Below are positions 49,705-64,000 of a stretch of DNA of 64,000 nt, piece after piece; within the stretch, counting starts at the first letter, position 1; each line of letters opens with the position of its first letter. Origin of the DNA: Brucella rhizosphaerae (GTDB lineage: Bacteria > Pseudomonadota > Alphaproteobacteria > Rhizobiales > Rhizobiaceae); NCBI RefSeq assembly GCF_002252475.1, contig NZ_NNRK01000034.1, positions 496,001 to 560,000 on the forward strand, given 5' to 3'. The notes below the pieces were generated by a model that did not search any database, had not been told where the DNA came from, and worked only from the letters and a program-made list of their open reading frames with translations. The position numbers and the translations under genes were made by a program.

Positions 49705-50090
49705 TATTTAATTTACTAAAATTCTATTTATATAGAATAATATTTGTTTTCTGAAAACGCGATAAGATATTGAAATCATTATGTATAGCTGACCTGTAAA
49801 TCATGTGTTATGTAATACAGGTGGCTTACGGTTTTGTAGTCGATGAATAGAATTCACGGATTCCGGCGCCATCGAATCCCTTCAATTTATATGTGTTTGT
49901 CTGGCTGAGTTTTTGCGCGCATCCCCAAAAGTGTGAAACATCTTGGGGCTCAAGATGCGTGTCAGGCTATTTGTCGGAACGCCCGATTTGATTCAATCGG
50001 ATCGGATGCGTTCTGATGTCTGAGTGTGCCTGCTTGTAGAGTTTTTTAGAGTAAATATTGCTTCATAGGGACAATGTTGGGATTTACGCA
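49705..50090. other. Intergenic region between metH and the LuxR-type regulator
   Basis: AT-rich at first, with a small palindrome ATTCTAT / ATAGAAT at 49721-49738. Repeats of families A and F lie at 49917-50021. The remainder is the regulator's leader; it has no clear lux box. Confidence 0.5.
49917..50021 (+). repeat. Mosaic repeat (families A and F)
   Basis: A variant family A hairpin (ATCCCCAAAAGTGTGAAACA, then TCTTGGGGCTCAAGATGCGT, 49917-49965), then family F (GATTCAATCGGATCGGATGC, 49976-50021). The A-then-F order is the same as in the 23865-24066 mosaic. The stem bases are changed on both sides (CCCCAA / TTGGGG), a compensatory change that keeps the hairpin. Confidence 0.7.
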
Positions 50091-50798
50091 ATGAAATGGG
50101 AAGTTTTATACGAAAAGATACAATCATCCGATAATGCAGAACACCTATTTGAACATGTTAGGTCTCATGCTGAAGAGCTCGGCTTTCAATACGCGTCCTA
50201 TGCAATGTGTGTGCCGTCTCTGAACAGTGTTGCTCGCTGGGTGCGTTATGAATCATTGCCTGCCGACTGGCAGAAGCATTACGCGGCGCATAAATATGCC
50301 GAAATTGATCCGGTCATCAGGCGTGGCAAAAATAGCATCGAACCTTTGATCTGGTCCAGCAGGCTGTTTGCAGAGGCGCCACAAATGTGGCTCGACGCTC
50401 AGAAGTTCGGGCTGAAAGCCGGCATCTCTCAGCCGTGCTGGGCGGCCCAGGGCGTCTTTGGAATTCTTACATTCCTGCGTGAGAAACCAGCCTTGTCAGA
50501 CGGTGAAATCTCGAGGCTGCGTCGGCAGATGCAGATCGTAACCAATCTTCTGCATCTTGCTATGTATGAACATGTCGATGTTCCAAGCATTAATTGTGTG
50601 GCTGAGGTTAATCTGACAGCGCGCGAGCGTGAGATCCTGCGGTGGACGAGCGAAGGAAAGACTGCCGAGATTATCGGCAAAATCCTCAATATCTCGACCC
50701 GGACTGTCAATTTCCATATCAGCAACGTTCTCATCAAACTTGTTGCGGTCAACAAGGTGCAGGCCGTTGCCAAAGCGCGGACCTTCGGTCTGCTTTAA
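50091..50798 (+). CDS. babR: LuxR-family regulator, BabR/BlxR-like
   Basis: 235 aa from the ATG at 50091; a TTG start at 50058 is possible. N-terminal autoinducer-binding domain with the conserved Trp/Tyr/Asp pocket (LGFQYASYAM, WVRYESLPADWQKHYAAHKYAEIDPVI) and a C-terminal GerE helix-turn-helix (NLTAREREILRWTSEGKTAEIIGKILNISTRTVNFHISNVLIKL). Position after metH matches the Brucella quorum-sensing regulator BabR/BlxR, as I recall it. No luxI-like synthase is in the window, so its ligand is unknown. Confidence 0.8.
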   Translation: MKWEVLYEKIQSSDNAEHLFEHVRSHAEELGFQYASYAMCVPSLNSVARWVRYESLPADWQKHYAAHKYAEIDPVIRRGKNSIEPLIWSSRLFAEAPQMWLDAQKFGLKAGISQPCWAAQGVFGILTFLREKPALSDGEISRLRRQMQIVTNLLHLAMYEHVDVPSINCVAEVNLTAREREILRWTSEGKTAEIIGKILNISTRTVNFHISNVLIKLVAVNKVQAVAKARTFGLL

Positions 50799-50880
50799 TA
50801 AATTATATCCCTCGGCGGTTTGGTCCGAAGGATGCTTCAATCCTTGTTTGACAAAAATTTTACTCATCAAAAATTGCTTT

Positions 50881-50903
50881 AATACTACAAATTTAGTAGT
50901 ATT
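50881..50903 (+). terminator. AT-rich hairpin after babR
   Basis: Arms AATACTAC / GTAGTATT with a seven-base loop, followed by TTCC. It is 80 bases past the stop codon. Weak as a terminator, so it could also be a binding site. Confidence 0.4.
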
Positions 50904-51114
50904 TTCCGTGGTTTGACCCAAAATCCTGTTTCTTGATGCAGCGCAAGTTTGTTCCTGCTTCTGGCCTAAAACTGGCAAGTTTTCGCTTAAGCCTCTCGCA
51001 AAACGCGATAGCATACTTTTCCTTTTATCCGGTCTTTCACGACAATGCGCTCAGAGTGGTTTCCCCACGCTAGCGCCGGGTCAAGGTATCTGCCCACCCT
51101 CCCGTCAGTACAGA

Positions 51115-51165
51115 GCGCATCCCGAAAAGTGTGAAGCGGTTTTCGGACAAGATACGCGTCAGAGT
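51115..51165 (+). repeat. Family A repeat in the cysD leader
   Basis: GCATCCCGAAAAGTGTGAAG CGGTTTTCGG plus GATACGCGTC: hairpin CCGAAAA / TTTTCGG. Matches the copy at the end of cysH; both copies flank sulfur-assimilation genes. Confidence 0.8.
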
Positions 51166-51202
51166 TAAAGTTAGATTGATCCGGATTCCGGGAGAAACAG
51201 AC

Positions 51203-52123
51203 GTGCATCACGCATCCCTGACCAAAAACCTGACGCATCTTGAGCGTCTGGAAGCAGAAGCAATCCATATTTTCCGCGAAGTAGCTGCCACCTTCTCCAA
51301 CCCGGTCATGCTCTATTCGGTAGGCAAGGACTCGTCGGTGATGCTGCATCTGGCGATGAAGGCATTTTATCCCGCACCTCCGCCATTTCCATTCCTGCAT
51401 GTCGACACGACATGGAAATTTCGCGAAATGATCGAGTTCCGCGATGCACAGGCGCGCGAAAAGGGCTTTGAACTGCTGGTGCATATCAATGAAGATGGGG
51501 TGCGTGATGGCGTTGGCCCTTTCACACATGGCTCCAATGTTCACACCCATGTCATGAAAACGGTAGGACTGCGGCAGGCGTTGGACAAATACAAGTTCGA
51601 TGCAGCTTTCGGCGGCGCGCGCCGTGACGAGGAAAAATCCCGCGCCAAGGAGCGCATTTTTTCGTTCCGTAATGCACAGCATGGCTGGGACCCGAAGAAC
51701 CAGCGTCCCGAAATGTGGAAGGTCTATAACACGCGGGTTTCAGCTGGTGAATCGATCCGCGTCTTTCCGCTTTCCAATTGGACTGAGCTGGATATCTGGC
51801 AGTATATCCTGCAGGAAAATATCCCGATCGTGCCGCTCTATTTTGCTGCAAACCGTCCGGTGGTCGAGCGCGATGGCATGCTGATCAAGGTCGATGATGA
51901 CCGCATGACGCTTCGTCCCGGTGAAAAAGTCGAGGAACGACTGGTGCGCTTCCGCACACTCGGCTGCTACCCGCTGACGGGTGCGATTGAATCAAGCGCA
52001 ACCAATCTTTCCGATGTTGTCGAAGAAATGCTGATTGCCCGCACCTCGGAGCGTCAGGGTCGTGCCATTGATCGCGATGAAGCAGGTTCAATGGAAAAGA
52101 AGAAGCGTGAGGGCTATTTCTGA
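51203..52123 (+). CDS. cysD: Sulfate adenylyltransferase subunit 2
   Basis: 306 aa from a GTG at 51203, with GGGAGAA seven bases upstream; the frame is open to 51131 but that part is repeat [24 protein letters not shown] is the PP-loop (SGGKDS-type) motif; [35 protein letters not shown] and [11 protein letters not shown] follow. With CysN it makes APS from sulfate and ATP. Its stop overlaps the cysN start by one base (TGATG). Confidence 0.97.
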
Positions 52124-54057
52124 TGAATGCGACAATCAAGCCTTCAACAGTAAGCGCTGCTGTCAGCGATTTCCTTGCCGATCAGGAGCGAAAAACGCTA
52201 CTGCGCTTTCTCACCTGCGGTTCTGTTGATGACGGTAAGTCCACGCTGATCGGCCGTCTTCTTTATGACACCAAGCTGATTTTTGAAGATCAGCTGGCCA
52301 CACTGAAGAATGACAGCCGCAAATTTGGCACGACTGATGACGATTTCGACTTTGCACTTCTGGTTGATGGTCTGGAAGCTGAGCGCGAGCAAGGCATTAC
52401 GATTGATGTCGCCTATCGCTTTTTCTCGACCCCACGCCGTAAATTTATCGTCGCTGATACGCCTGGCCACGCGCAATATACGCGCAATATGGCGACCGGT
52501 GCTTCGACTGCTGATCTGGCAGTTGTGCTGATTGATGCGCGTCAGGGTGTGCTGACGCAGACGCGTCGCCATTCCTTTATCGCGTCGCTCCTCGGCATCC
52601 GGCACATCGTGGTGGCGGTCAACAAGATCGATCTGGTTGATTTTTCGCAGGAAGCGTTTGATGGAATTGTCGCTGACTATATGAGCTTCGCCAAAGACTT
52701 AGGCTTTGCGAGCATTCAGGCAATACCGCTTTCAGCGCGCTACGGGGATAATGTCACCAGCCTGTCTCCACGCATCGGCTGGTATGAAGGTCCATATCTG
52801 CTTGAACATCTGGAAACTGTGCGTATCGATACGGAAGCCAACGCCAGGCCGTTCCGCTTTCCGGTGCAGTATGTGAACCGTCCCAATCTTAATTTTCGTG
52901 GTTTTTCCGGCACTGTTGCTTCTGGTGTGATCGCCCAAGGCGATACGGTTGTCATTGCAAAGTCGGGCAAGCAATCGCGGGTTAAACGCATTGCCACTTA
53001 TGATGGCGATTTGCCGCGCGCTTCAGAAGGGCAGGCCGTAACGCTGGTTCTCGAAGACGAGATCGAGGTCTCCCGCGGCAATATGCTCGTTGGCACAGAA
53101 GCGCGCCCTGAAGTGGCAGATCGCTTTGCTGCCAGTATCGTTTGGTTTGGCGATGAGGCTTTACAGCCCGGACGCTCCTATCTCCTGCGCACTGAAACGG
53201 ACCAGACGCCAGTCACGATCAATGCGATCAGGTACCGAACTGACGTCAATACATTTGCGCGCGAAGATGCGGCACAGCTTGATCTGAATGAAGTTGGTCT
53301 TTGCCATCTCCAGACGGCAGACCAGATCGTTTTTGATCCTTATGTCGACAATCGTGTCACTGGCGCTTTTGTACTGATTGATCGACTGACCAATGCGACA
53401 GTTGGTGCTGGCATGATCGATCACGCGCTGCGTCAGGCGACGAATGTGCATTTGCAGGCTTTCGATCTTGATAAGCAGGCGCGTGCTACACAGAAATTCC
53501 AGAAGCCTGCCGTGCTTTGGTTTACGGGGCTTTCGGCGTCGGGCAAGTCAACCATCGCCAACCGGCTGGAACAGCGACTTCACGCGCTTGGCAAGCATAC
53601 TTATCTGCTCGACGGCGATAATGTGCGCCATGGTCTCAATAGCGATCTCGGCTTTTCCGACGAAGATCGTGCAGAAAACATCCGCCGTGTCGGTGAAGTG
53701 GCGGGGCTGATGGCCGATGCGGGATTGATTACGCTTGTGTCTTTTATCTCGCCGTTTCGTGCCGAACGTGATCGCGTGCGTTCACGGCTGCTGGACGGAG
53801 AGTTTATCGAAATCTTTGTCGATACATCGATTGAGGAATGCATGGCGCGTGATCCGAAAGGGCTTTATGCGCAAGCGTTGCGGGGTGAGATTAAAGCCTT
53901 CACCGGAATAGATTCTCCTTATGAAGCGCCTCTTTCACCCGAGCTGCATCTCAGCACCGCAGGGCGTGACATTGACGAACTGGTCGCAGAGGTGGAAAAG
54001 TATCTCGCCGAACGCGGTGTTATCGGCAGCTATGGCAGCGATTCTTGGTCGATTTGA
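52123..54057 (+). CDS. cysNC: Fused sulfate adenylyltransferase subunit 1 / APS kinase (CysN-CysC)
   Basis: 644 aa bifunctional protein, as in rhizobial NodQ. The CysN GTPase (about 1-440) has the P-loop CGSVDDGKSTLIGRLL (near 31), DTPGHAQYTRNM and NKIDLV; the CysC kinase (from about 455) has FTGLSASGKSTIANRLEQRL with the Walker A near 470 and DGDNVRHGLNSDLGFSDEDRAENIRRVGEVA. It drives APS synthesis with GTP and phosphorylates APS to PAPS. Coupled to cysD. Confidence 0.97.
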   Translation: MNATIKPSTVSAAVSDFLADQERKTLLRFLTCGSVDDGKSTLIGRLLYDTKLIFEDQLATLKNDSRKFGTTDDDFDFALLVDGLEAEREQGITIDVAYRFFSTPRRKFIVADTPGHAQYTRNMATGASTADLAVVLIDARQGVLTQTRRHSFIASLLGIRHIVVAVNKIDLVDFSQEAFDGIVADYMSFAKDLGFASIQAIPLSARYGDNVTSLSPRIGWYEGPYLLEHLETVRIDTEANARPFRFPVQYVNRPNLNFRGFSGTVASGVIAQGDTVVIAKSGKQSRVKRIATYDGDLPRASEGQAVTLVLEDEIEVSRGNMLVGTEARPEVADRFAASIVWFGDEALQPGRSYLLRTETDQTPVTINAIRYRTDVNTFAREDAAQLDLNEVGLCHLQTADQIVFDPYVDNRVTGAFVLIDRLTNATVGAGMIDHALRQATNVHLQAFDLDKQARATQKFQKPAVLWFTGLSASGKSTIANRLEQRLHALGKHTYLLDGDNVRHGLNSDLGFSDEDRAENIRRVGEVAGLMADAGLITLVSFISPFRAERDRVRSRLLDGEFIEIFVDTSIEECMARDPKGLYAQALRGEIKAFTGIDSPYEAPLSPELHLSTAGRDIDELVAEVEKYLAERGVIGSYGSDSWSI

Positions 54058-54061
54058 GAAC

Positions 54062-54901
54062 ATGAAAACATTCGCCTCACCAACAGCCGATATGGATGGC
54101 CAGACACTTCTTGCCGTTTTGCAGGAAGCGACGCTTGAAGCCGGGCGTGTGATCATGAAGCACTATACCAATGGCTGTGCTGTCAGCGCCAAGAAGGATC
54201 AGTCGCCGGTCACTGAGGCGGACCATGCGGCAGAAGCCATTATCCTGTCGGCGCTCGCCTCTGTTGCTTCCGATATTCCGGTGGTGGCAGAAGAGGAAGC
54301 AGCGGCAGGGCGTCTGCCTGCGCATTTGGGTCGAAGATTCCTACTGATCGATCCACTGGATGGGACGCGGGAATTCCTGCTGCGCAATGGCGATTTCACA
54401 GTGAATATCGCGCTTATAGAGGATGGTGCGCCTGTGGCTGGACTGGTCTATGCGCCCGTACGCAATCTCCTTTATGTCGGAAGCCTTGACGGCGCGGTTG
54501 AAATCGTGACGAGTGCTGATCATATCGTCAAAAGCCAAAGACCGATTAAGGCGCGTATTGCACCCTCCAAGCGCGTTGTCGTGTGCAGCCGGTCGCATAT
54601 TACAACGGAGACAGAACAGTTTCTGAAAGCCAACCAGATCGGCGATAGCGTTTCCGTTGGATCATCGCTCAAGTTCTGCATGATTGCGCGCGGGGAAGCC
54701 GATTTATATCCCCGCTTTGGCCCGACAATGGAGTGGGATACGGCGGCGGGTGATGCGGTGCTTCGTGCCGCTGGCGGGATGACGACGACCTTTGATGCGC
54801 GTCCGCTGACTTATGGCCAGCGTTCCGATGGCACAGTGCAAGGCTTTGCAAATCCCGATTTTGTCGCTTACGGCGCGGGGGCAGCGCCTGTTTTTGCTTA
54901 A
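54062..54901 (+). CDS. cysQ: 3'(2'),5'-bisphosphate nucleotidase CysQ
   Basis: 279 aa from the ATG at 54062, four bases after cysNC; the longer frame overlaps cysNC. Inositol monophosphatase fold: PVTEADHAAEAIIL, VVAEEEAA, LLIDPLDGTREFLLRNGDFTVNIALI (the metal-binding DPxDGT motif) and the second metal site MEWDTAAGDAVLRAAGG. It hydrolyses PAP, relieving inhibition of sulfur and RNA enzymes, and can turn PAPS back to APS, which fits an operon containing an APS kinase. Confidence 0.95.
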   Translation: MKTFASPTADMDGQTLLAVLQEATLEAGRVIMKHYTNGCAVSAKKDQSPVTEADHAAEAIILSALASVASDIPVVAEEEAAAGRLPAHLGRRFLLIDPLDGTREFLLRNGDFTVNIALIEDGAPVAGLVYAPVRNLLYVGSLDGAVEIVTSADHIVKSQRPIKARIAPSKRVVVCSRSHITTETEQFLKANQIGDSVSVGSSLKFCMIARGEADLYPRFGPTMEWDTAAGDAVLRAAGGMTTTFDARPLTYGQRSDGTVQGFANPDFVAYGAGAAPVFA

Positions 54902-54956
54902 ATTAAGCGGCCTCAAAGCCTCTCTTTGGAACTGATAAGCCAGCTAATCGGACCGC

Positions 54957-55004
54957 TGCATAATTTCACCTCAGATTTTTATCAGGCTAAGGTGAAATTA
55001 TGCA
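54957..55004 (+). terminator. Large hairpin after cysQ
   Basis: Perfect 15-base arms TGCATAATTTCACCT / AGGTGAAATTATGCA with an 18-base loop that itself contains CAG...ATCAGG. It lies 55 bases past cysQ, overlaps the family D repeat (54990-55062), and could end the cysDNCQ transcript. Confidence 0.55.
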
Positions 55005-55062
55005 GCAAATTTAAGCTGTTATGGTGACGTTTATGCGCACAATAGGGCGCAGGGTGCTCTAT
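54990..55062 (+). repeat. Interspersed repeat family D, copy 2
   Basis: AGGTGAAATTATGCAGCAAA ... GCGCAGGGTGCTCTATG parallels 3333-3405 along its length. Confidence 0.65.
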
Positions 55063-55168
55063 GCTTTCAAAAGAGTGGAAAAAAAGCGAATACGCCCCTT
55101 GCGACTTGAAAACAGCGGCGCTATAAGCCGCGTCACGGTCGGGCTTAAGGGTCACGATTATATGGACA

Positions 55169-55245
<77 letters not shown>

Positions 55246-55297
55246 TTTTCTTCCCGGGAAATATCTCAAAATCTAATCTCTTGGTGATCCGACGAAG

Positions 55298-56062
55298 CTA
55301 ATTTGTTTTGTCGAAGACTGACATTCGCATGAATTCGCCGTCATATTCGGCAATGTCGACCAGTCTGTGCCGGTCGAGTATTTCGACCTTATAGGATCGG
55401 AACATCACCAGACCTTCCTCGCGCAGCTCACGCATCATGCGATTGAGGTGAATGGGCGTCAGGCCGAGCGCATCTGCCAGCTGATATTGGGTCAGTGGGC
55501 AATAAAAAGAGTCCGGTTCACCCATTCCGCAGGATTTAACCCGATCGGATAGTTCGAGCAGAAGGTGCGCTGTGCGGACGAAAGCGCTTCGGCAGCCAAC
55601 ATTCGTCAAATGTTCAATGAGCATAGAGCGCTGTCTTGAAAGCAACTCGATGAAGATCATGCTCAGCTTTGGAATCTGCCAGATGGTCTTCTCCAGCGAG
55701 GCCAGCGGTATCTCATAGACTGACATGGGAGTGATCGTCTTGATGGTATTGTAGCTGTAGCCGTTTGCGGTGCGTAGCCCAACGAAGTCACACCGCATGG
55801 GGAAATCAATGATCTGGCGCTCACCACTGGACAGATCGCGATAAACACATCCCCATCCCGAGCGCACCAGATGGATGCTTCTGATCGAGGCCCCCTGTTC
55901 GATGATGACGGTATCAGCAGGATAGCTGCTCTCGGAAATGACGAGAGACTGCAAGGATTCTTTTTCCTGCGTGTTCAGTTTGGCTAGAATTGGAGGAGAT
56001 TCCAATAGGCTAACCAAGCCGTCGATCAGTAGGGCGGTGGCGTTCAGATTACCACTATGCAT
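55298..56062 (-). CDS. Crp/Fnr family transcriptional regulator
   Basis: 254 aa. N-terminal cyclic-nucleotide-binding-like barrel (YPADTVIIEQGASIRSIHLVRSGWGCVYRDLSSGERQIIDFPMRCDFVGLRT) and a C-terminal HTH_Crp helix-turn-helix (LTQYQLADALGLTPIHLNRMMRELREEGLV). The N-terminal Fnr-type cysteine cluster is absent, so it is not an oxygen-sensing Fnr; the effector is unknown. Such genes are numerous in Rhizobiales. It is divergent from the CsgD-like regulator gene, with 245 bases between them. Confidence 0.88.
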   Translation of the reverse strand: MHSGNLNATALLIDGLVSLLESPPILAKLNTQEKESLQSLVISESSYPADTVIIEQGASIRSIHLVRSGWGCVYRDLSSGERQIIDFPMRCDFVGLRTANGYSYNTIKTITPMSVYEIPLASLEKTIWQIPKLSMIFIELLSRQRSMLIEHLTNVGCRSAFVRTAHLLLELSDRVKSCGMGEPDSFYCPLTQYQLADALGLTPIHLNRMMRELREEGLVMFRSYKVEILDRHRLVDIAEYDGEFMRMSVFDKTN

Positions 56063-56307
56063 TCGCTGACTATGCCCAACGAAAGTTATAGGATCTATAA
56101 CTTTATGTTCCTGAAGTCGTTCTTATGGCGATTAATTTTTTTTATGAAGTGCTAACATAAGTTAATGACACGTTTATTTGGTGATAGCAATATTTAGACC
56201 AGTCTTCATCGGGATTGGCAATGAAAATCCTAATAAAATGGCGCGGTTTCTATGATGACTAGTGTTTTGTGTTGAGAGAAAACCTGAGTAACAGGGGAAA
56301 CTAAGCA

Positions 56308-57069
56308 ATGTTGGAAGTGAGAGAACGATACTTATGGACAGCAGCTGACAGTAGTGGTGATGGAGCTTCCATCGCGGCTGGTGAAAGAAAGAAAAATGAA
56401 GACTATGCAGCCGGTTTGCCTGTGCAGAATGAGCCACACCTGATGCTCGTCTGTAAAAGCAATCTGGAGCGGGAGTGCCTCTTCAACGGATTGATGATGA
56501 ATGGGCTTAAACTTCCTGTCGTCAGCTGCGCTGCTATCGACAAAAACATGGCGTTGAATGGGGCAATTGTTGTCCTGATGCATATTGGCTCAAAACGCCT
56601 CGCCGACCCGTTTTTTTCCGATGAGGTGGAGGCCGCGGTTAAGGCATGGCATCCGATACCGCTTGTGCTTCTTGCCGAACGCGAAGAGTGGTCGCAGGTT
56701 CTGCGTGCGATGGAAATCGGAGCGCGTGGCTATATTCCGACATCGGTCGATATCAGGATTTGCGTGGAGGCAATTCATCTCGCCCTGGCGGGCGGCATGT
56801 ATGTGCCAGCTTCGATGCTTATGAAGCCGCCGTCGCAGGACTTGAGCGATGACGTGCTGGGTGAGTTGTTGACTGTACGCGAGATTGAGGTTGTTCATGC
56901 AATCCGGGTGGGAAAATCCAATAAGATCATCGCGTTTGAACTTGGCATGAGTGAAGGGACGGTAAAGGCACATGTCCACAACATCATGAGAAAGATCGGT
57001 GCCGCCAACCGCACCGAAGTCGCTTGCAAGCTGCACAAGATGTACGGCAATAAATTCAGCGGAGAATAA
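56308..57069 (+). CDS. LuxR/NarL-type regulator with a degenerate receiver (CsgD-like layout)
   Basis: 253 aa. After a 45-residue unmatched N-terminus, a receiver-like domain (HLMLVCKSNLERECLFNGLMMNGLKLPVVSC ... PLVLLAEREEWSQVLRAMEIGARGYIPTSVDIRICVEAI) ends in a GerE helix-turn-helix (LTVREIEVVHAIRVGKSNKIIAFELGMSEGTVKAHVHNIMRKIG). At the usual phospho-acceptor position the sequence reads AIVVLMHIGS, with His in place of Asp, so classical phosphorylation is unlikely. CsgD and related biofilm regulators share this plan. The ribosome site (AGGGG) is rather far, 12 bases. Confidence 0.82.
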   Translation: MLEVRERYLWTAADSSGDGASIAAGERKKNEDYAAGLPVQNEPHLMLVCKSNLERECLFNGLMMNGLKLPVVSCAAIDKNMALNGAIVVLMHIGSKRLADPFFSDEVEAAVKAWHPIPLVLLAEREEWSQVLRAMEIGARGYIPTSVDIRICVEAIHLALAGGMYVPASMLMKPPSQDLSDDVLGELLTVREIEVVHAIRVGKSNKIIAFELGMSEGTVKAHVHNIMRKIGAANRTEVACKLHKMYGNKFSGE

Positions 57070-57103
57070 AGTTACTCGCATGCAGACATACCCATTCTGG
57101 AAA

Positions 57104-57145
57104 CTATGAAGCGCCGGACTGACAGGATCAGCCGGCGCTTCATAG
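57104..57145. terminator. Strong hairpin after the CsgD-like gene
   Basis: Arms CTATGAAGCGCCGG / CCGGCGCTTCATAG with a 14-base loop, 35 bases past the stop codon; no long T-run. Followed by a second hairpin GTAGGGGCAG / CTGCCCCTAC (57196-57223). Confidence 0.6.
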
Positions 57146-57223
57146 CTTTCGGGCCATGGAACAGAGCAAAGCTTGCTGCTCGTAAAAATAAAGGGGTAGG
57201 GGCAGATTTTCACCTGCCCCTAC

Positions 57224-57265
57224 AGAATGAGAGTGGGTATCCTTTGAGGGGTCTCTCATTCTTTT
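57224..57265 (+). terminator. Terminator-like hairpin
   Basis: Arms AGAATGAGAG / CTCTCATTCT followed by TTTCC; the last of three hairpins between the convergent genes. Confidence 0.45.
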
Positions 57266-57379
57266 CCACGCGGAATGACGCGTAACTGTCTTCCGCTGCA
57301 GTCACTTGAGTGAGGCGAATAATCCGTCGAGCCGTTGGAACGATGGTTTTCGCTTAACAAATATCCGCTCCAATTCCAT

Positions 57380-57778
57380 TCAGGGGCGAAGGCTGATACT
57401 GCCGGATGATCCGCCAGATGTGGTGCCGAAGGCGGTGCCCGCTGAGCTGCCACCGAGAAACCCGGTTCCTGACTGCGCCATGGCTGCAGTCTGACCACCG
57501 GAGCCGGAAGTGAAATAGCCTGAACCTATACCGGCGCTTGCCCCGTAATGGCCGATTTTACCGCCGAGCCCGACGACGGTGCCTTTGCCTTCTGCCCAGC
57601 CAGTGGTTGCTGCCTGGCCAGCCGCCGTCGAACCTGCGCCGAATGCGAAGCCACCTGTTACGGCGGAACCAGCACCACTGGCGCCGCCAAAGCTGCCATT
57701 CCAGTTGACGGTTTGCGCCGCAGCGGGCAGGGCGCCGGCCGCGAGAAGTGCGATAGATGCGATGATGATTTTCTTCAC
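57380..57778 (-). CDS. Secreted glycine-rich low-complexity protein, unrecognised
   Basis: 132 aa, GTG start with a strong AGGAGG. Signal peptide KKIIIASIALLAAGALPAAAQ; the mature 110 residues are mainly Gly, Ala, Ser and Thr (SFGGASGAGSAVTGGFAFG, then GSGGQTAAMAQSGTGFLGG), with few charges, one Trp pair and no Cys. The composition and the alternating G-x-G/A-x-G pattern resemble extracellular fibre or matrix proteins, but no repeat consensus of a known amyloid family was seen. Divergent regulators lie next to it. Confidence 0.72.
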   Translation of the reverse strand: MKKIIIASIALLAAGALPAAAQTVNWNGSFGGASGAGSAVTGGFAFGAGSTAAGQAATTGWAEGKGTVVGLGGKIGHYGASAGIGSGYFTSGSGGQTAAMAQSGTGFLGGSSAGTAFGTTSGGSSGSISLRP

Positions 57779-57942
57779 GATGTACTCCTCCTGTTTTCGA
57801 CAAAGCCGGGTTAAATCCCACTATTGCCTGGCATATCTTGACGATATACCCCGCTACCCATTCGATGCTGGGCCAGTACGTATGAGTAAAAGGCTGTATC
57901 GGTGATATGGATTTGGGCTCAACGGCCCATTGCATCGGCAGT

Positions 57943-57977
57943 GGGCATCGGTTCAAAAGAGTTTGAAACCGATGCCC
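57943..57977 (-). terminator. Hairpin after the Cys-rich secreted protein gene
   Basis: Arms GGGCATCGGTT / AACCGATGCCC around AAAGAG-type loop, about 17 bases past the stop codon on the minus strand. Confidence 0.55.
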
Positions 57978-57994
57978 TTAGCCGCCCCCCGGCT

Positions 57995-58678
57995 TTACAT
58001 GACCGGTCCTGGACAATGCCAGGCGCGGCTGTTCTCGGTTGTTGTACGCAGAACGCACCCTTTGGCACGCAACTGATCGGAACTAAGACCAAGTGCCTTG
58101 GCAGAATAAGTACGCTTGCGGCTGGCTGCTTGCGGTGAAGGCGTCGTTCCATTTGTACTGGCAGGAATTGACGCAGGTTCTTCATTGGAAACAGACGCCA
58201 AAAGCGGTGCCTGCCTTGCCCGACGCGGTGCCGATGCCGAGCGCGCCGCAGCACCTTGCGATGGGCAGTAAACGCCGGTCGCATTCAGAGACGCTCTGAC
58301 TTCCTTGTTAAGACAGATCAGATCAAGTGCCGCCCCATTTTGCCCCATGCCCAAGAGTGCTGCTGCATAGGCGCGCCGATTGCATTCACGCATTTCATAT
58401 GTGCTGCCGAAGCCTAAGCCCCAGCCCGTTGCCCCGACACCGACACTTGTCGAACCTGCGCAGGAATGTACGCCTGCTGCGACGAGTCCCGGTGCAAAAG
58501 CAGGTACAGTCGTCTTGATTTTATCTGGCGAGTTGGACCCACCACCAATAGCGATGGCCGTAGCGCCAGCCTGGGATGATGAGTTTGTATTGTTGTCCAC
58601 ATTAACAGCTTGAGCGAATGCATTTCCTCCGAAGAGAAGAAGTGTGCCAGATAAGCAAAGGATACCCAGTTTAGACAT
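57995..58678 (-). CDS. Secreted protein with six or more cysteines, unrecognised
   Basis: 227 aa, ATG after GGAAGGGG. Signal peptide SKLGILCLSGTLLLFGGNAFA. The mature part has a Ser/Asn/Gly-rich start (VDNNTNSSSQAGATAIAIGGG), a middle domain APGLVAAGVHSCAGSTSVGV then GSTYEMRECNRRAYAAALLGMGQ and ALDLICLNKEVRASLNATGVYC, and a Pro/Ser/Arg-rich linker before a C-terminal part with KGCVLRTTT and WHCPG. Cysteines come at about 72, 99, 122, 138, 209 and 222 and are likely disulfide-bonded. I do not recognise the family. It is upstream of the glycine-rich gene on the same strand. Confidence 0.72.
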   Translation of the reverse strand: MSKLGILCLSGTLLLFGGNAFAQAVNVDNNTNSSSQAGATAIAIGGGSNSPDKIKTTVPAFAPGLVAAGVHSCAGSTSVGVGATGWGLGFGSTYEMRECNRRAYAAALLGMGQNGAALDLICLNKEVRASLNATGVYCPSQGAAARSASAPRRARQAPLLASVSNEEPASIPASTNGTTPSPQAASRKRTYSAKALGLSSDQLRAKGCVLRTTTENSRAWHCPGPVM

Positions 58679-59137
58679 AGCTAACCCCTTCCACTTTTAC
58701 TTTGTATTTCTGAAGTTGTATTATGATAAAGGCGCCATTATCATCTATTTTTTATTTTCCAGTTTGCACGCATAAAAGATTGTTTCGATAGTATTTAAAA
58801 AGCAGATTATGAGAATATAAATGTTGTGCTATTTTTTACCTACAATGTGTAAGCAGTTTATTATTCTTAATCTATATTGTTATCGTTCGGATATTTTTGG
58901 ATTGGAAACTCTGACCTTAGTTTTGCTTCTAAACGGAAGTTTATAGCTGTTTGGTTGAGGCGAAGGCCCCGTATTGAGTGATGAAGGCCAAGAAAGCGTG
59001 CAAACCTCGGAGGGTGATGAAAATTGCTGCATCGGGGCGGCACTTTCCGGCTGTTTTGTCATCAAGCGGTTGCTTTCTCTTGCAAAACAGCGAAATTACC
59101 AACTTGTAGTTAGAACAATTCCATTGCCGGGCACAAA
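58679..59137. other. AT-rich intergenic region
   Basis: 459 bases, AT-rich from 58700 to 58960 and unlike the neighbouring GC-richer genes. It carries the near-palindrome at 58723-58744 near the secreted-protein gene and the glpR leader at the right. A 79-codon frame (58974-59213) overlaps glpR and was not accepted. Confidence 0.55.
58723..58744 (-). promoter_or_regulatory. 22-base near-perfect palindrome upstream of the Cys-rich secreted protein gene
   Basis: ATGATAA / TTATCAT around a GGCGCC core; only one central pair is mismatched. It is 45 bases upstream of the ATG at 58678, a typical operator distance. Confidence 0.55.
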
Positions 59138-59929
59138 ATGCAGCTTACCCCTCGCCACAATGCAATTCTCGACATCGCTCGCCGACAGGGGCAGGTATTG
59201 GTCGATGACCTAGCAGCCGCGTTCGATGTGACACCACAAACCGTACGCAAGGATCTCAATGATCTTTGCAAGGCGCGTTTTCTGCGCCGCATTCATGGTG
59301 GCGCGCTCTATCCGTCCGGCGTTGAAAACATGGAATATGAGGCTCGCCGCCGGATCGCTGCGCATGAGAAGGAACTGATCGGGCGCGCTGCTGCTGAAAT
59401 GATCCCCGATGGGGCATCGCTGTTTATCAATATTGGCACTACGACCGAAGCCGTCAGCCACGCGCTTATTGACCACAATCATCTCATGGTCATCACCAAC
59501 AACATCAATGTTGCCAATACGCTGCGTGTCTATCCCGAAATAGAGGTCGTTATTGCTGGTGGTGTCGTGCGAGCATCAGATGGCGGTATTGTTGGTGAGG
59601 CTGCGGTTGATTTCATCCGTCAGTTCAAGGTCGATTATGCAATCATTGGCGCGTCAGCGATGGATGAAGATGGTGCGCTGCTTGATTTCGACTTCCGCGA
59701 AGTGAAGGTCGCTCAGGCTATCATCGCCAATGCGCGCCATGTGATTCTGGTAACCGACTCAACCAAGCTGGAGCGAACCGCGCCGGTGCGACTTGGTCAT
59801 ATATCGCAGGTCCACACTTTTATCACCGATCGCTGTCCATCACAGCAATTGCGTGATTTGTGCCGGGAGAATGAGGTTGAACTCATTGAAACGTCGGTTG
59901 AGTTGCCTGTCGAACAGAAAGAATCGTAG
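59138..59929 (+). CDS. glpR: DeoR-family repressor, GlpR-like
   Basis: 263 aa. N-terminal HTH_DeoR (LTPRHNAILDIARRQGQVLVDDLAAAFDVTPQTVRKDLNDLCKARFLRRIHGGALYPSG) and the DeoR sensor domain (SLFINIGTTTEAVSHALIDHNHLMVITNNINVANTLR), which has the sugar-phosphate-binding loop. Being directly upstream of glpD (about 80 bases) makes it the likely glycerol-3-phosphate-responsive repressor of glycerol catabolism. Confidence 0.9.
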   Translation: MQLTPRHNAILDIARRQGQVLVDDLAAAFDVTPQTVRKDLNDLCKARFLRRIHGGALYPSGVENMEYEARRRIAAHEKELIGRAAAEMIPDGASLFINIGTTTEAVSHALIDHNHLMVITNNINVANTLRVYPEIEVVIAGGVVRASDGGIVGEAAVDFIRQFKVDYAIIGASAMDEDGALLDFDFREVKVAQAIIANARHVILVTDSTKLERTAPVRLGHISQVHTFITDRCPSQQLRDLCRENEVELIETSVELPVEQKES

Positions 59930-60010
59930 TTTCATTTCATTTTCGTTTTGCTTTCGTATGAAATGAATTATATTCGCTTTGGTGGTTGGAGAAGGTCTTC
60001 AGGGTTCGCC

Positions 60011-61534
60011 ATGGCGCAGAATAAAATATTCGATAAAACATTCGACATTTTCGTAATCGGTGGCGGCATCAACGGATGCGGCATTGCAAGAGACGCGGTG
60101 GGGCGTGGCTTCTCCGTGGGTCTTGCCGAGATGAACGATCTGGCAAGTGGCACCTCGTCACGTGCTACCAAGCTCATTCATGGCGGTTTGCGCTATTTGG
60201 AGCATTACGAATTCCGTCTGGTGCGCGAAGCGCTGATGGAGCGGGAAGTGCTTTGGGCCAACGCGCCGCATATCATTCATCCGATGCGCTTTGTGCTGCC
60301 TTTTCATAAGGGTGGTGTGCGTCCGGCATGGCTTTTGCGCCTTGGCCTGTTTCTGTACGATCATCTCGGTGGCCGCAAGAAACTGCCTGCGACGCGCACG
60401 CTCGACATGCGAACGGACCCCTCAGCTGCGCCGCTGAAGCCACTTTTCACCAAGGCTTTTGAATATTCCGATTGCTGGGTGGATGACGCTCGCTTCACGG
60501 CCTTAACCGCACGTGATGCCGCAGATCGTGGTGCAATGATCCGCACGCGCACCAAGGTTGTATCGGCTCGTCGCGACCACGAAGCATGGACAGTGACGCT
60601 GGAAAACATCGACACAGGTGCGCGCGAAGAGGTTCGTGCGCGTCTGCTGGTCAATGCAGCCGGCCCATGGGCCGATAAAGTATTGCAGGGCGTTGAGGGT
60701 GATCGGCAACTGCATAATGTGCGCCTGGTTCAGGGCAGCCATATCGTCGTGCGCAAAAAGTTCTCCGATCCACGTTCCTATTTCTTCCAGAACAATGACG
60801 GACGTATCATCTTCGCCATCCCTTACGAAGACGATTTTACACTGATTGGTACCACCGATCAGGACTATCATGGCGATCCGGCCAAGGTCGCGATCAGCGA
60901 TAAAGAAACCGATTATCTCTGCGCGTGTGCCAGTGAGTATTTCAAGGAGCCGGTGCGCCTTGAGGATATCGTCTGGACCTATTCCGGCGTGCGTCCGCTC
61001 TATGATGATGGTGCGAGCAAGGCGCAGGAAGCAACCCGCGATTACGTCTTGAAGGAAGATGCACCGCAGGGCGCAGCACCGCTGATCAACGTCTTTGGCG
61101 GTAAGCTCACCACTGCGCGCAGGCTTGCGGAGCATATGCTTGAGAAGATCGAGCATCATCTGGGCAAAAAAGCAGCACCCTGGACCCATGCCGCAGCACT
61201 GCCGGGCGGTGATTTTGAGGCAACGGCCTTTGATCGTGAACTGGAAAAACTGAAAGCTGCCTATCCGTTCCTTTCGTCCATCCACGCTCGGCGTCTGTTT
61301 CGGCTCTATGGAACACGTGCACGGGTTCTGCTCAGCAAAGCCACGTCACTGGCTGATCTTGGGCGGCATTTTGGCGGAGATCTTTATGAGGCAGAAGTGC
61401 GCTATCTCATTGAAAATGAGTGGGCGCACACGGCAGAAGATATTCTGTGGCGGCGCACAAAGCTTGGTCTTCGTTTGAACGCTTTGGAAGTTTCTGCGCT
61501 GGAGTCTTTCCTGAAGCCGGTTAAGGCCGCTTAG
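60011..61534 (+). CDS. glpD: Aerobic glycerol-3-phosphate dehydrogenase
   Basis: 507 aa from the ATG at 60011; earlier in-frame starts lack support. FAD-binding FDIFVIGGGINGCGIARDAVGRG, then LASGTSSRATKLIHGGLRYLEHYEFRLV and the DAO-type core with RPLYDDGASKAQEATRDYVL. Membrane-associated flavoenzyme oxidising glycerol-3-phosphate to DHAP and feeding quinone. Its TAG stop is the first base group of family B repeat copy 61533. Confidence 0.96.
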   Translation: MAQNKIFDKTFDIFVIGGGINGCGIARDAVGRGFSVGLAEMNDLASGTSSRATKLIHGGLRYLEHYEFRLVREALMEREVLWANAPHIIHPMRFVLPFHKGGVRPAWLLRLGLFLYDHLGGRKKLPATRTLDMRTDPSAAPLKPLFTKAFEYSDCWVDDARFTALTARDAADRGAMIRTRTKVVSARRDHEAWTVTLENIDTGAREEVRARLLVNAAGPWADKVLQGVEGDRQLHNVRLVQGSHIVVRKKFSDPRSYFFQNNDGRIIFAIPYEDDFTLIGTTDQDYHGDPAKVAISDKETDYLCACASEYFKEPVRLEDIVWTYSGVRPLYDDGASKAQEATRDYVLKEDAPQGAAPLINVFGGKLTTARRLAEHMLEKIEHHLGKKAAPWTHAAALPGGDFEATAFDRELEKLKAAYPFLSSIHARRLFRLYGTRARVLLSKATSLADLGRHFGGDLYEAEVRYLIENEWAHTAEDILWRRTKLGLRLNALEVSALESFLKPVKAA

Positions 61535-61634
61535 AGCGGTTTCAGTTCAGACCAAAACGTTGGAACCGCTCTATCTGTTTGTTTTTGCGCATTATCCGAC
61601 GCAGAACGGCTTCGCACCTTGCTGGAAATGCTTT
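61533..61634 (-). repeat. Interspersed repeat family B, reverse copy
   Basis: Reverse orientation of 32058-32158; it begins with AGAGCGGTTTCAGTTCAG at the glpD stop and ends GCTGGAAATGCT. It may act as a 3'-end hairpin for the glpD mRNA. Confidence 0.85.
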
Positions 61635-61713
61635 AATCGCTCACTTGCAACCCTCGATATAAAAAGTCATTATCTTTCCAGCAGGCGGTTTCCAGCCTTT
61701 CTGGGAGGAAAAC

Positions 61714-62682
61714 ATGGGTGCACCGCAAGACAGAATTCATGCTGACCGCATCCACTCGGCTATCGACACGGGTGGTGCGGCCCGCTCAGCGCTTGTCGCG
61801 TCCTGGCGGCGTTCCGCGCAATTGCATGGATTGGATCCGGCAGAGCTGGGGTCCGTTCAAACCCTCTCTGATGGTGAATTTCGCAATGTGCGTCAGCGTA
61901 TGGAGCGTGTTGTCCATATAGCGCAAGCGAGTATGGATCGCCTTTATATGGCGGTCGGCGGCGTTGGCTGCTGTGTGCTTCTGGCTGACAGCGATGGTGT
62001 TCCGGTGGAGCGACGGGGTGCTGCAGGCGATGACGATACATTCTACGACTGGGGTCTGTGGACCGGTGCCGTGTGGAGCGAAGCCGTTGAGGGTACCAAC
62101 GGGATCGGTACATGCATTGCCGAACAGCGTGCGCTGACCATCCATCGCGATCAGCATTTTCACACCCGGAATATTGGCTTGTCCTGTACGGTTGCGCCAA
62201 TTCATGACCATCAGGGTCGGTTGATGGCAGCTCTTGATGTCTCGTCGTGTCGCAGTGATCTGACGGAAGCTTTCGTGCAGCTCATCTCCGTGGCCGTTAT
62301 TGATGCCGCGCGCCGGATAGAAGCCGAAAATTTCCGACAGGCTTTTCCCCAAGCGCGCATCATGCTGGCACCAAGCGCGGATCGTACCGGCGGCGCGCTG
62401 ATTGCCGTCGATAAGGACGATCTGGTGATTGGTGCGACGAGGGCTGCGCGGCTTTCACTCGGTCTTACCGATGAAGCTCTTTCTACAGCACTTCCGGCTG
62501 CCGATCTTTTGGGTTGGCATGCCGATCCGCGGGAGGATATGGCGGAATCCGAGCGCAGCGTTATCCTGCGGGCTATCGCTCGTTCAGACGGCAATGTTTC
62601 CTCTGCTGCCAAGCTTCTTGGCATCAGTCGTGCAACGCTTCACCGCAAGCTCAATCGGCTGAAAATCATTCGTCCGAACTAA
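61714..62682 (+). CDS. AcoR-like regulator without a sigma-54 AAA+ domain
   Basis: 322 aa. A GAF domain (about 70-200: AVGGVGCCVLLADSDGVPVERRGAAGDDDTFYDWGLWTGAVWSEAVEGTNGIGT then CTVAPIHDHQGRLMAALDVSS) and a C-terminal Fis-type helix-turn-helix (ERSVILRAIARSDGNVSSAAKLLGISRATLHRKLNRLKI). The central AAA+ domain of AcoR is absent, so it cannot activate sigma-54 polymerase in the standard way. Next gene is aldehyde dehydrogenase, its probable target. Confidence 0.88.
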   Translation: MGAPQDRIHADRIHSAIDTGGAARSALVASWRRSAQLHGLDPAELGSVQTLSDGEFRNVRQRMERVVHIAQASMDRLYMAVGGVGCCVLLADSDGVPVERRGAAGDDDTFYDWGLWTGAVWSEAVEGTNGIGTCIAEQRALTIHRDQHFHTRNIGLSCTVAPIHDHQGRLMAALDVSSCRSDLTEAFVQLISVAVIDAARRIEAENFRQAFPQARIMLAPSADRTGGALIAVDKDDLVIGATRAARLSLGLTDEALSTALPAADLLGWHADPREDMAESERSVILRAIARSDGNVSSAAKLLGISRATLHRKLNRLKIIRPN

Positions 62683-62705
62683 AATCTTCATTCGGTTTTC
62701 CAAAC

Positions 62706-62723
62706 TGTCTCATTATTGAGACA
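62706..62723 (+). promoter_or_regulatory. Inverted repeat before the aldehyde dehydrogenase gene
   Basis: Perfect seven-base arms TGTCTCA / TGAGACA with a TTAT spacer, about 105 bases upstream of the ATG. Candidate operator for the upstream AcoR-like regulator. Confidence 0.6.
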
Positions 62724-62827
62724 CATTGATACAGCATAGTCATAAGTGTGGATGACTCCTCCCAAGAGCCGCGCCATCTTGAAACAATAAACGTCGTAGG
62801 AGCGGCGTTGTCTTTGGGAGGAATGTC

Positions 62828-64000
62828 ATGAACAAGGTAGAATTTCATCGCTCCGTAAAGCCGGAGTTTGCCAAACGCTATGGCAATTTCATTGGCGGTA
62901 AATGGGTAGAACCCAAGTCTGGCCGCTATTTCGACAATACATCCCCAATCAATGGTCAGGTTTTGTGCGAAGTCGCACGTTCAGATGCAGCCGATGTTGA
63001 TGCGGCGCTTGATGCAGCCCATGCAGCCAAGGATGCCTGGGGCAGAACAAGTCCGGCAGAACGCGCTGTGATCCTCAACAAGATCGCAGACCGTATGGAG
63101 GAGAACCTGCCGAAGCTTGCAGCCGCCGAAACATGGGACAATGGCAAGCCGATCCGCGAAACCACCAATGCCGATCTCCCGCTCGCAATTGACCACTTCC
63201 GTTATTTCGCTGGTGCTATCCGTGCGCAGGAAGGTGGAATTTCGGAAATCGACCATGATACGGTCGCCTATCATTTCCATGAGCCGCTGGGTGTTGTTGG
63301 TCAGATTATTCCGTGGAATTTCCCAATTCTTATGGCCGTGTGGAAACTGGCGCCAGCTCTTGCCGCGGGTAACTGCGTGGTGCTGAAGCCAGCCGAACAG
63401 ACGCCTGCATCCATCCTGGTGCTGATGGAGGTCATTGGTGATCTTCTGCCTGCCGGCGTGCTTAACGTGGTCAATGGTTTTGGTCTGGAAGCAGGCAAAC
63501 CACTGGCATCAAGTCCGCGCATTGCTAAGATCGCCTTCACCGGTGAAACGACAACCGGCCGCCTCATCATGCAATATGCCAGCCAGAATCTTATTCCGGT
63601 TACGCTGGAACTGGGTGGTAAATCGCCGAACATCTTCTTCTCCGATGTGACTGCCGAAGACGATGATTATTTCGACAAGGCCATTGAAGGCTTCGTCATG
63701 TTCGCCCTCAATCAGGGCGAAGTCTGCACCTGTCCCAGCCGCGCGCTGATCCATGAAAAGATCTATGACAAGTTCATGGAACGCGCATTGAAGCGCGTTG
63801 AAGCCATTGTTCAGGGCGATCCGCTTGATCCCGCAACCATGATCGGTGCACAGGCTTCAAGCGAGCAGCTCGAAAAGATCCTGAGTTATATCGATATCGG
63901 CAAGCAGGAAGGCGCAGAAGTACTGACTGGCGGTGGGCGCAATGAACTGGCTGGTGATCTGGCGGGAGGCTATTACGTCAAGCCAACCGTCTTCAAGGGC
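62828..64000 (+). CDS. Aldehyde dehydrogenase (AldB/ExaC-like), cut by the window end
   Basis: 391 codons present; the gene runs off the right edge. ATG after GGGAGGA. NAD(P)-dependent aldehyde dehydrogenase: [23 protein letters not shown], catalytic Glu261 in [11 protein letters not shown] and nucleophile Cys300 in [12 protein letters not shown]. The pairing with an AcoR-like regulator fits acetaldehyde or alcohol metabolism, as with AldB/ExaC; the true substrate is inferred. Confidence 0.93.

What the first reader, a model, noticed from the sequence alone, without database searches (positions are those of the whole stretch)
55298..58744. Candidate secreted-matrix system: two regulators and two orphan secreted proteins
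A Crp-type regulator, a divergent CsgD-like regulator whose receiver lacks the phospho-acceptor Asp, and two unrecognised exported proteins (one Gly/Ala/Ser-rich without Cys, one with six or more Cys) form a compact block in a stretch with AT-rich intergenic DNA, many hairpins and a strong palindrome. CsgD-like regulators often control surface fibres and biofilm matrix. The combination suggests an undescribed surface or matrix system; the function is not proven.
Basis: inference. Interest (0 to 1): 0.7.

Follow-up and report, generated by a model that had tools for sequence, protein, structure and literature searches.

The report
Secreted protein pair beside biofilm-type regulators
Two small secreted bacterial proteins of unknown families, one mostly glycine, serine and alanine and one with a four-cysteine domain, sit together here beside two regulators whose duplicate copies sit at sugar-polymer (slime) genes, and similar pairs recur in distant bacteria and some phages, so they look like an undescribed surface or matrix module, though what they do is untested.

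Summary
In detail: a Crp-type gene, a divergent LuxR/FixJ-type gene whose receiver has His in place of the phospho-acceptor Asp, and two Sec-like exported proteins without Pfam or NCBIfam match (S1, Gly/Ala/Ser/Thr-rich, no Cys; S2, seven Cys). The genome belongs to the Brucella/Falsochrobactrum group. S1 and S2 occur in the same genomes (own plus 11 of 34 same-genus genomes), beside this regulator pair in 12 of 12, under purifying selection. The regulator pair is paralogous to a second pair directly upstream of exopolysaccharide-type genes; both share an 18-bp site whose zero-mismatch copies in 10 genomes (16 of 16) all lie between such regulators. S2 carries an undescribed four-Cys domain found also in Methylobacterium, Bradyrhizobium, Novosphingobium, Burkholderia, Variovorax and phages; 38 of 49 S2 loci tested (not independent) have an S1-like low-complexity secreted protein within 3 kb, against 4 in about 490 kb of farther flanks; some also have LuxR-type regulators, a VpsR-domain activator or a diguanylate cyclase nearby. 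Best reading: a two-gene surface/matrix module under CsgD-class control. Function is inferred: no localisation or expression is known, the structure models are poor, S1-like proteins of other clades are not demonstrably homologous, and the shared site was not found before S1 or S2.

The parts
55298..56062 (-). Crp/Fnr-type regulator (P0001, 254 aa)
   Evidence: Pfam cNMP_binding and HTH_Crp_2; nearest solved relatives FNR/FixK2/CRP by sequence; paralogue at the EPS locus 49% identical
56308..57069 (+). LuxR/FixJ-type regulator with degenerate receiver (P0002, 253 aa)
   Evidence: GerE 1.4e-16; acceptor Asp replaced by His, no W[FLM][TS]R motif; paralogue 42% identical at the EPS locus
57380..57778 (-). 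S1: Gly/Ser/Ala/Thr-rich protein with Sec-like N terminus, 132 aa, no Cys
   Evidence: composition and dN/dS; occurs in the same 12 genomes as S2
57995..58678 (-). S2: protein with Sec-like N terminus, 227 aa; N/S/T/G-rich segment, four-Cys domain (residues about 52-142), two further Cys at the C terminus
   Evidence: phrog_20531 1.5e-8
56153..56170 (+). Operator-like site TAAYHTADRTTAATGACA shared with the paralogous regulator pair; overlaps a -35-like hexamer of the LuxR gene
   Evidence: present in 26 of 26 Crp-LuxR intergenic regions examined; 16 of 16 zero-mismatch hits in 10 genomes lie in such regions; -35-like at 56165 (a consensus match only)
56082..56104 (.). Perfect 10+10 palindrome just upstream of the Crp-type gene; in several relatives both arms changed together
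   Evidence: not found intact in all relatives (for example L035, L049, L057)
58725..58742 (.). Palindrome GATAANGGCGCCNTTATC in the S2 upstream region
   Evidence: complete in 4 of 8 aligned upstream regions; the looser pattern matched in 5 of 11 S2-bearing loci scanned and 0 of 7 others
57196..57223 (-). Terminator-like stem after S1
57101..57148 (.).

Best explanation
S1 and S2 form a small secreted module. Both have Sec-like signal peptides (inferred from sequence); S1 would be a low-complexity structural polymer or matrix protein, and S2 its partner: a low-complexity Asn/Ser/Thr-rich segment that could mix with S1, followed by a probably disulfide-stabilised four-Cys domain that caps, nucleates or anchors it at the envelope. 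Shown: the genes are conserved as a pair, under selection, and S2 recurs with an S1-like neighbour in distant taxa. Expression is set by the adjacent Crp-type and LuxR-type regulators, the latter acting without phosphorylation like CsgD; the paralogous pair sits directly upstream of exopolysaccharide-type genes, so the two pairs would coordinate protein and sugar parts of one matrix. Shown: paralogy, a shared DNA site, adjacency. Inferred: that the regulators bind the site, that S1-S2 are their targets, and the matrix role.
For: Pairing and synteny 12 of 12. Purifying selection. Paralogous regulator pair followed by polysaccharide genes in 6 of 6 fetched loci with the LuxR paralogue; in the own genome Poly_export 1.9e-18, GDP_Man_Dehyd 1.3e-150, Epimerase 5.9e-62 and two glycosyltransferases, and a Wzc/Wzz-like protein with hits below their cut-offs. 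Shared 18-bp site. Four invariant Cys in 19 of 19 aligned S2 domains. S1-like protein within 3 kb in 38 of 49 S2 loci against 4 in about 490 kb of farther flanks; 0 of 176 overlapping control windows, these from Brucella-group DNA only. GerE within 3.5 kb of S2 in 5 of 11 genera against 0.26 expected. One Burkholderia locus: VpsR-domain sigma-54 activator, 2.1e-19. Variovorax and G580 loci: GGDEF cyclase near. CsgD acts unphosphorylated; CsgD and VpsT are biofilm activators (PMC10333796, passages).
Against: The shared site was not found before S1 or S2 (window scan with 3 mismatches gives only the Crp-LuxR site). The LuxR gene persists in 19 of 31 genomes without S1-S2. Many S2 loci have no LuxR-type gene near: 12 of 26 have one within 5 kb, one of them (L084) weak and unconfirmed; density 12 in 250 kb near against 4 in 188 kb farther, only about twice. 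S1 is no closer to S1-like proteins of other clades than shuffled S1 is, so 'S1-like' is a composition class. Models are poor (pLDDT 48.8 and 41.6). No route across the outer membrane was recognised among the neighbours read; none was searched for. S2 also occurs in phages, 4 of the 6 tested without an S1-like gene by the rule. Five S1-S2 genomes show no LuxR paralogue, so the EPS pair is not needed for keeping S1-S2.
Confidence: 0.5

Rival explanations
1. S1-S2 are a genuine secreted pair, but their neighbourhood with these regulators is only inherited linkage: the two regulators serve themselves and the EPS locus, and S1-S2 have their own promoter and another role in the envelope.
For: S1-S2 can be absent while the regulators stay, with alignable flanks on both sides in two relatives; S2 has its own upstream palindrome and the operator-like site is absent there; Crp-type and LuxR-type genes each in 31 of 35 genus genomes, both in 30 (counted).
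Against: 12 of 12 S1-S2 carriers keep the linkage, and S2 loci of other genera have LuxR-type genes near more often than expected.
Confidence: 0.27
2. S2 is a phage-born envelope protein (for instance one that alters the infected cell's surface or blocks further adsorption), domesticated in bacteria; S1 is an accessory of it, not a matrix polymer.
For: S2 relatives in Agrobacterium phage JP1 (with an S1-like gene next to it), several pelagiphages, Achromobacter phage JWDelta and a 141-kb viral contig.
Against: In the Brucella group the pair sits at a fixed place between the same regulator and, in 10 of 12, glpR, with no phage gene recognised among the neighbours read, and is kept by selection.
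Confidence: 0.13
3. S1-S2 are a contact-dependent bacteriocin pair with aggregating Gly-rich proteins, like CdzC/CdzD of Caulobacter.
For: Gly-rich; GxxxGxxxG 5 times against a mean of 2.6 in shuffles; Cdz proteins aggregate on the producer's surface and close relatives sometimes lack them (PMC5380434, passages).
Against: [quoted passage not shown] neither was recognised among the neighbours read here (no profile search for them), and S1/S2 have Sec-like N termini.
Confidence: 0.05
4. Only S2 matters; S1 is a fast-evolving low-complexity companion of little function.
For: Cross-clade similarity of S1 is no better than shuffles.
Against: dN/dS of S1 0.01-0.24 within the group and the same 12 genomes as S2.
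Confidence: 0.05

Closest known systems
Curli system (CsgD with csgBAC / csgDEFG)
   Same: LuxR/FixJ-type regulator with non-canonical receiver beside low-complexity secreted proteins, one of them possibly a nucleator or anchor
   Different: No Pfam or NCBIfam hit for S1 or S2, no CsgG/E/F-like genes recognised nearby, S2 has a four-Cys domain; roles of the csg genes are recalled
Vibrio cholerae VpsR/VpsT matrix control
   Same: A VpsR-domain activator in one Burkholderia locus; LuxR-type regulators with non-canonical receivers beside the module (Brucella group, L065) and at EPS-type genes
   Different: The LuxR-type proteins here lack the W[F/L/M][T/S]R c-di-GMP motif named in PMC10333796; the VpsR domain was tested in one locus and not sought in the others
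Burkholderia bep EPS control by BerA (CRP/FNR) and BerB (enhancer-binding protein)
   Same: A Crp-family regulator working with a second regulator next to an EPS cluster (PMC5552954, passages)
   Different: Second regulator here is LuxR-type; c-di-GMP binding by the Crp-type protein untested; the passages seen mention no such secreted pair
PHROG 20531
   Same: S2 and its relatives match this family: window 1.5e-8, others from 2.6e-12 to 2.8e-18
   Different: Annotated unknown function; built from viral proteins; no paper found by its number
Cdz glycine-zipper bacteriocins
   Same: Gly-rich, surface-aggregating secreted proteins in pairs
   Different: Type I secretion and immunity genes in the cluster there, none recognised here

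Membership tests
CsgD/VpsT subgroup of LuxR/FixJ regulators | LuxR-type C-terminal helix-turn-helix | tested here: met
   GerE 60.3 bits, cut-off 23.5
CsgD/VpsT subgroup of LuxR/FixJ regulators | Non-canonical receiver without phospho-acceptor Asp | tested here: met
   His in 7 of 8 orthologues aligned including the window, Asn in one; Asn in 3 of 3 paralogues
CsgD/VpsT subgroup of LuxR/FixJ regulators | W[F/L/M][T/S]R c-di-GMP motif (VpsT) | tested here: not met
   Absent in 14 of 14 aligned regulators; CsgD itself does not bind c-di-GMP (PMC10333796)
CsgD/VpsT subgroup of LuxR/FixJ regulators | Reaches the curated CsgD model (NF007505) | tested here: not met
   46.5 bits against 250
Curli | Curlin repeats in the secreted protein | tested here: not met
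   No Pfam hit for S1 or S2 at E 1, none for a GNGN-rich protein of L065 at 0.01
Curli | CsgG-type outer-membrane pore encoded nearby or elsewhere | not tested
   Not searched; none recognised by eye among neighbouring ORFs
Crp/Fnr family | Cyclic-nucleotide-binding fold plus Crp helix-turn-helix | tested here: met
   PF00027 and PF13545 over cut-off
Crp/Fnr family | Ligand (cAMP, c-di-GMP, iron-sulfur or none) | not testable with these tools
   No curated NCBIfam model reached its cut-off
Cdz-type contact-dependent bacteriocin | Type I secretion genes and immunity gene in the cluster | tested here: inconclusive
   None recognised by eye among neighbours; flanking genes checked by Pfam are sulfate, inositol-phosphatase-like, DeoR and FAD oxidoreductase genes; no profile search for transporters
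phrog_20531 | Profile match over the conserved domain | tested here: met
   Residues 22-149, E 1.5e-8

The most novel reading that the evidence does not exclude
S1-S2 is one branch of an undescribed, widely scattered extracellular polymer system of Pseudomonadota, also carried by phages: a fast-changing low-complexity Gly/Ser/Ala/Asn polymer defined by composition rather than sequence, paired with a conserved four-Cys partner that nucleates or anchors it, switched on by whichever biofilm regulator the lineage has (CsgD-class LuxR, ordinary LuxR response regulator, VpsR-type activator), and in the Brucella group wired through a shared operator to exopolysaccharide synthesis.
Probability: 0.38. 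Interest if true: 0.8.

Novelty: new variant of a known kind. Interest (0 to 1): 0.6.

Why it matters
If true, it gives a marker (the four-Cys S2 domain) by which a class of secreted low-complexity proteins, which ordinary homology searches cannot follow, can be found in genomes and phages, and it links them to known types of biofilm regulator. It also makes a testable wiring: duplicate Crp-LuxR pairs sharing one operator-like site, one copy at exopolysaccharide-type genes and one at the secreted pair.

Tried and rejected
AlphaFold of S2 (19-sequence alignment) and S1 (8 sequences) gave mean pLDDT 48.8 and 41.6, so no fold search was run; the 7 strands drawn for S1 are not evidence. Solved-structure sequence search with S2 gave 3 hits, best E 0.35. 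S1 similarity to S1-like proteins elsewhere looked strong without composition correction (E about 1e-10), but 45 of 60 shuffles score as high (30 of 60 with correction), so homology is unproven. Operator-like site upstream of S1 or S2: not found. At up to 2 mismatches that pattern has 40 hits in 10 genomes against 34 for its reversed control, so only the zero-mismatch hits mean anything, and the pattern was written from the regions it marks. VpsT-type c-di-GMP motif: absent. Rfam on 50000-64000: only tRNA-Pro. Viral scan with the Burkholderia-type domain found no relative. Literature: nothing on this pair seen in the listings of searches (open-access library only).

Loci counts: one search used 31 S2 loci (23 with an S1-like protein within 3 kb) and another 18 (15 with one), so 38 of 49. 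The 11 misses: L082 and L084 (each has S1-like ORFs 4-7 kb away), L090, L091, L097, L124, phages L105-L108, and L077, where a true S1 (98% identical) was missed by my signal-peptide rule. The 49 are not independent: 8 are from the Brucella group, and several are near-identical copies (for example L098-L103). Shorter or other copies of the same places (L001-L024, L028-L038, L058-L062, L068-L074, L089 against L067 both kept, L109-L118) were otherwise left out. In one search, 26 loci were used. In one search the listing was cut, so missing GerE rows make the 5 of 11 a lower bound.
Full report
What is there. The four genes of the finding are real and at the stated coordinates. Left of them lie sulfate-assimilation genes (PAPS_reduct; APS_kinase with an EF-Tu-type domain), an inositol-phosphatase-family gene and tRNA-Pro; right of them a DeoR-type regulator and a glycerol-3-phosphate-oxidase-type FAD gene, called cysDNQ and glpR/glpD below by recall. 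The window is G000:C27:496001-560000 of a 4.9-Mb genome.

The secreted pair. S1 (132 aa) and S2 (227 aa) have Sec-like N termini and no Pfam or NCBIfam match at E 1. S2 matches phrog_20531, unknown function. Among 60 genomes (own, 34 same-genus, 25 others) both occur in exactly the same 12: the own one and 11 of the 34, 0 of 25 others. In 12 of 12 the order and orientation Crp-LuxR-S1-S2 is kept; glpR follows in 10 of 12. dN/dS is 0.01-0.24 for S1 and 0.08-0.11 for S2. In two relatives without the pair (L044, L045) the window's DNA aligns on either side of it, up to 57266 and again from 58716 (L044) or 58810 (L045); L045 also has a 39-base, 79% match at the S2 start, 58651-58689 (E 1.7e-4, and 8 residues of S2 at E 5.7), a weak hint of loss rather than gain there.

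The regulators. The LuxR-type protein has lost the acceptor Asp (His, or Asn in one orthologue) and lacks the VpsT c-di-GMP motif. It and the Crp-type protein have paralogues in the own genome, 42% and 49% identical, in the same divergent layout. In 6 of 6 fetched loci with the LuxR paralogue, polysaccharide-type genes follow. In the own genome these are a Wzc/Wzz-like protein (GNVR and Wzz hits just below cut-off) and a Poly_export protein, 1.9e-18, on the LuxR strand, then a GDP_Man_Dehyd protein (1.3e-150), an epimerase and two glycosyltransferases. A seventh fetched locus, of G018, has the Crp paralogue only. Five genomes with S1-S2 (G004, G018, G025, G027, G032) show no LuxR paralogue at E 1e-30.

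A shared site. Both kinds of intergenic region carry TAAYHTADRTTAATGACA, in 26 of 26 examined, 130-154 nt (secreted-pair locus and its orthologues) or 160-183 nt (EPS locus) before the LuxR start. The pattern was written from these regions, so its presence there is by construction; what is informative is that the two diverged loci share it and that in 10 whole genomes all 16 zero-mismatch hits fall between such regulators. At up to 2 mismatches there are 40 hits against 34 for the reversed pattern, no real excess. It overlaps a -35-like hexamer. It was not found before S1 or S2. A second palindrome stands before the Crp gene, with both arms changed in several relatives.

Beyond the genus. Profile searches found the S2 domain in 6 of 397 genomes of the order, 7 of 398 of the phylum, 4 of 300 of the order of G717, 1 of 21 in a small repeat and 6 of 299 of the family of G502; the samples overlap. 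Named hits are 18 loci (7 of the Brucella group; the rest Methylobacterium, Bradyrhizobium, an Afipia MAG, Xanthobacteraceae and other Hyphomicrobiales or alphaproteobacterial MAGs), records of Burkholderia, Novosphingobium and Variovorax, and phages. Four Cys are invariant in 19 of 19 aligned domains. Next to S2 there is usually a secreted low-complexity protein: by a fixed rule (signal-like start, at least 60% G+S+A+N+T, at least 12% G, at most 2 Cys) 23 of 31 loci and 15 of 18 others have one within 3 kb, against 4 hits in about 490 kb of flanks farther out. A second control, 0 of 176 overlapping windows, used Brucella-group DNA only. In the pairs measured, gaps run from an overlap of 4 bases to a few hundred, mostly under 110. 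Agrobacterium phage JP1 has the same adjacent pair. The similarity of S1 to S1-like proteins elsewhere is compositional.

Regulators beyond the genus. Mapping GerE in 17 genomes places one within 3.5 kb of S2 in 5 of 11 genera, 0.26 expected, P about 2.5e-6 if genera are independent (distances read from the listing, which was cut). In 26 fetched loci, 12 have a LuxR-type gene within 5 kb, one of them weak (L084); farther out there are 4, so density is only about twice as high near S2. L065, of an unnamed genus of the same order, has a LuxR-type protein with Ser at the acceptor column, upstream and on the same strand as S1-like ORFs and S2. One Burkholderia locus has a VpsR-domain sigma-54 activator (2.1e-19) and a LuxR-type gene. 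Variovorax and G580 loci have GGDEF cyclases near. The Bradyrhizobium, Novosphingobium and G580 loci have no LuxR-type gene within 5 kb where that much sequence was available.

Reading. CsgD-like regulators with non-canonical receivers activate biofilm genes, CsgD in its unphosphorylated state (PMC10333796, passages; VpsT background PMC3359988, passages). In Burkholderia a CRP/FNR protein and an enhancer-binding protein together control an EPS cluster (PMC5552954, passages). By that analogy and the paralogy with the EPS-locus pair, S1-S2 most likely belong to surface or matrix formation. That is inference; localisation, expression and structure are not shown, and the AlphaFold models are unusable.

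Novelty. The parts are of a known kind (CsgD-class regulator, low-complexity secreted protein); the S2 domain and its pairing are, as far as the searches named in Tried and rejected go, undescribed.

Noticed in passing
54982-55269 (-): The 95-aa ORF opposite tRNA-Pro looks like the familiar spurious product of an antisense tRNA gene, not a protein (familiarity recalled).
   Followed up: no
54955-55006: 20-nt-arm inverted repeat, 95% complementary, just after the inositol-phosphatase-family gene.
   Followed up: no
50058-50798 (+): Another LuxR-type regulator (GerE 67 bits) beside the sulfate genes, about 5.5 kb before the finding's LuxR gene.
   Followed up: no
L045 (G034): A relative without S1-S2 has a 39-base match at the S2 start, perhaps a deletion scar; weak.
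   Followed up: partly
L135, L140, L144, L146, L148, L154: A palindrome-like 2-mismatch version of the shared site recurs in 8 of 10 genomes at another place; in 4 of the 6 loci looked at it lies about 50-120 bases downstream of an ORF of 162-196 aa.
   Followed up: partly
L105, L106, L108: In three pelagiphages the S2 relative is followed by a 430-470 aa protein, without Pfam match in the two tested; in HTVC023P the S2 relative follows a purM gene.
   Followed up: partly
L095, L099, L101, L104, L120, L121: A third short secreted protein (about 110-130 aa; no Pfam match in the three tested) follows S2 in these loci, one of them a 141-kb viral contig.
   Followed up: partly
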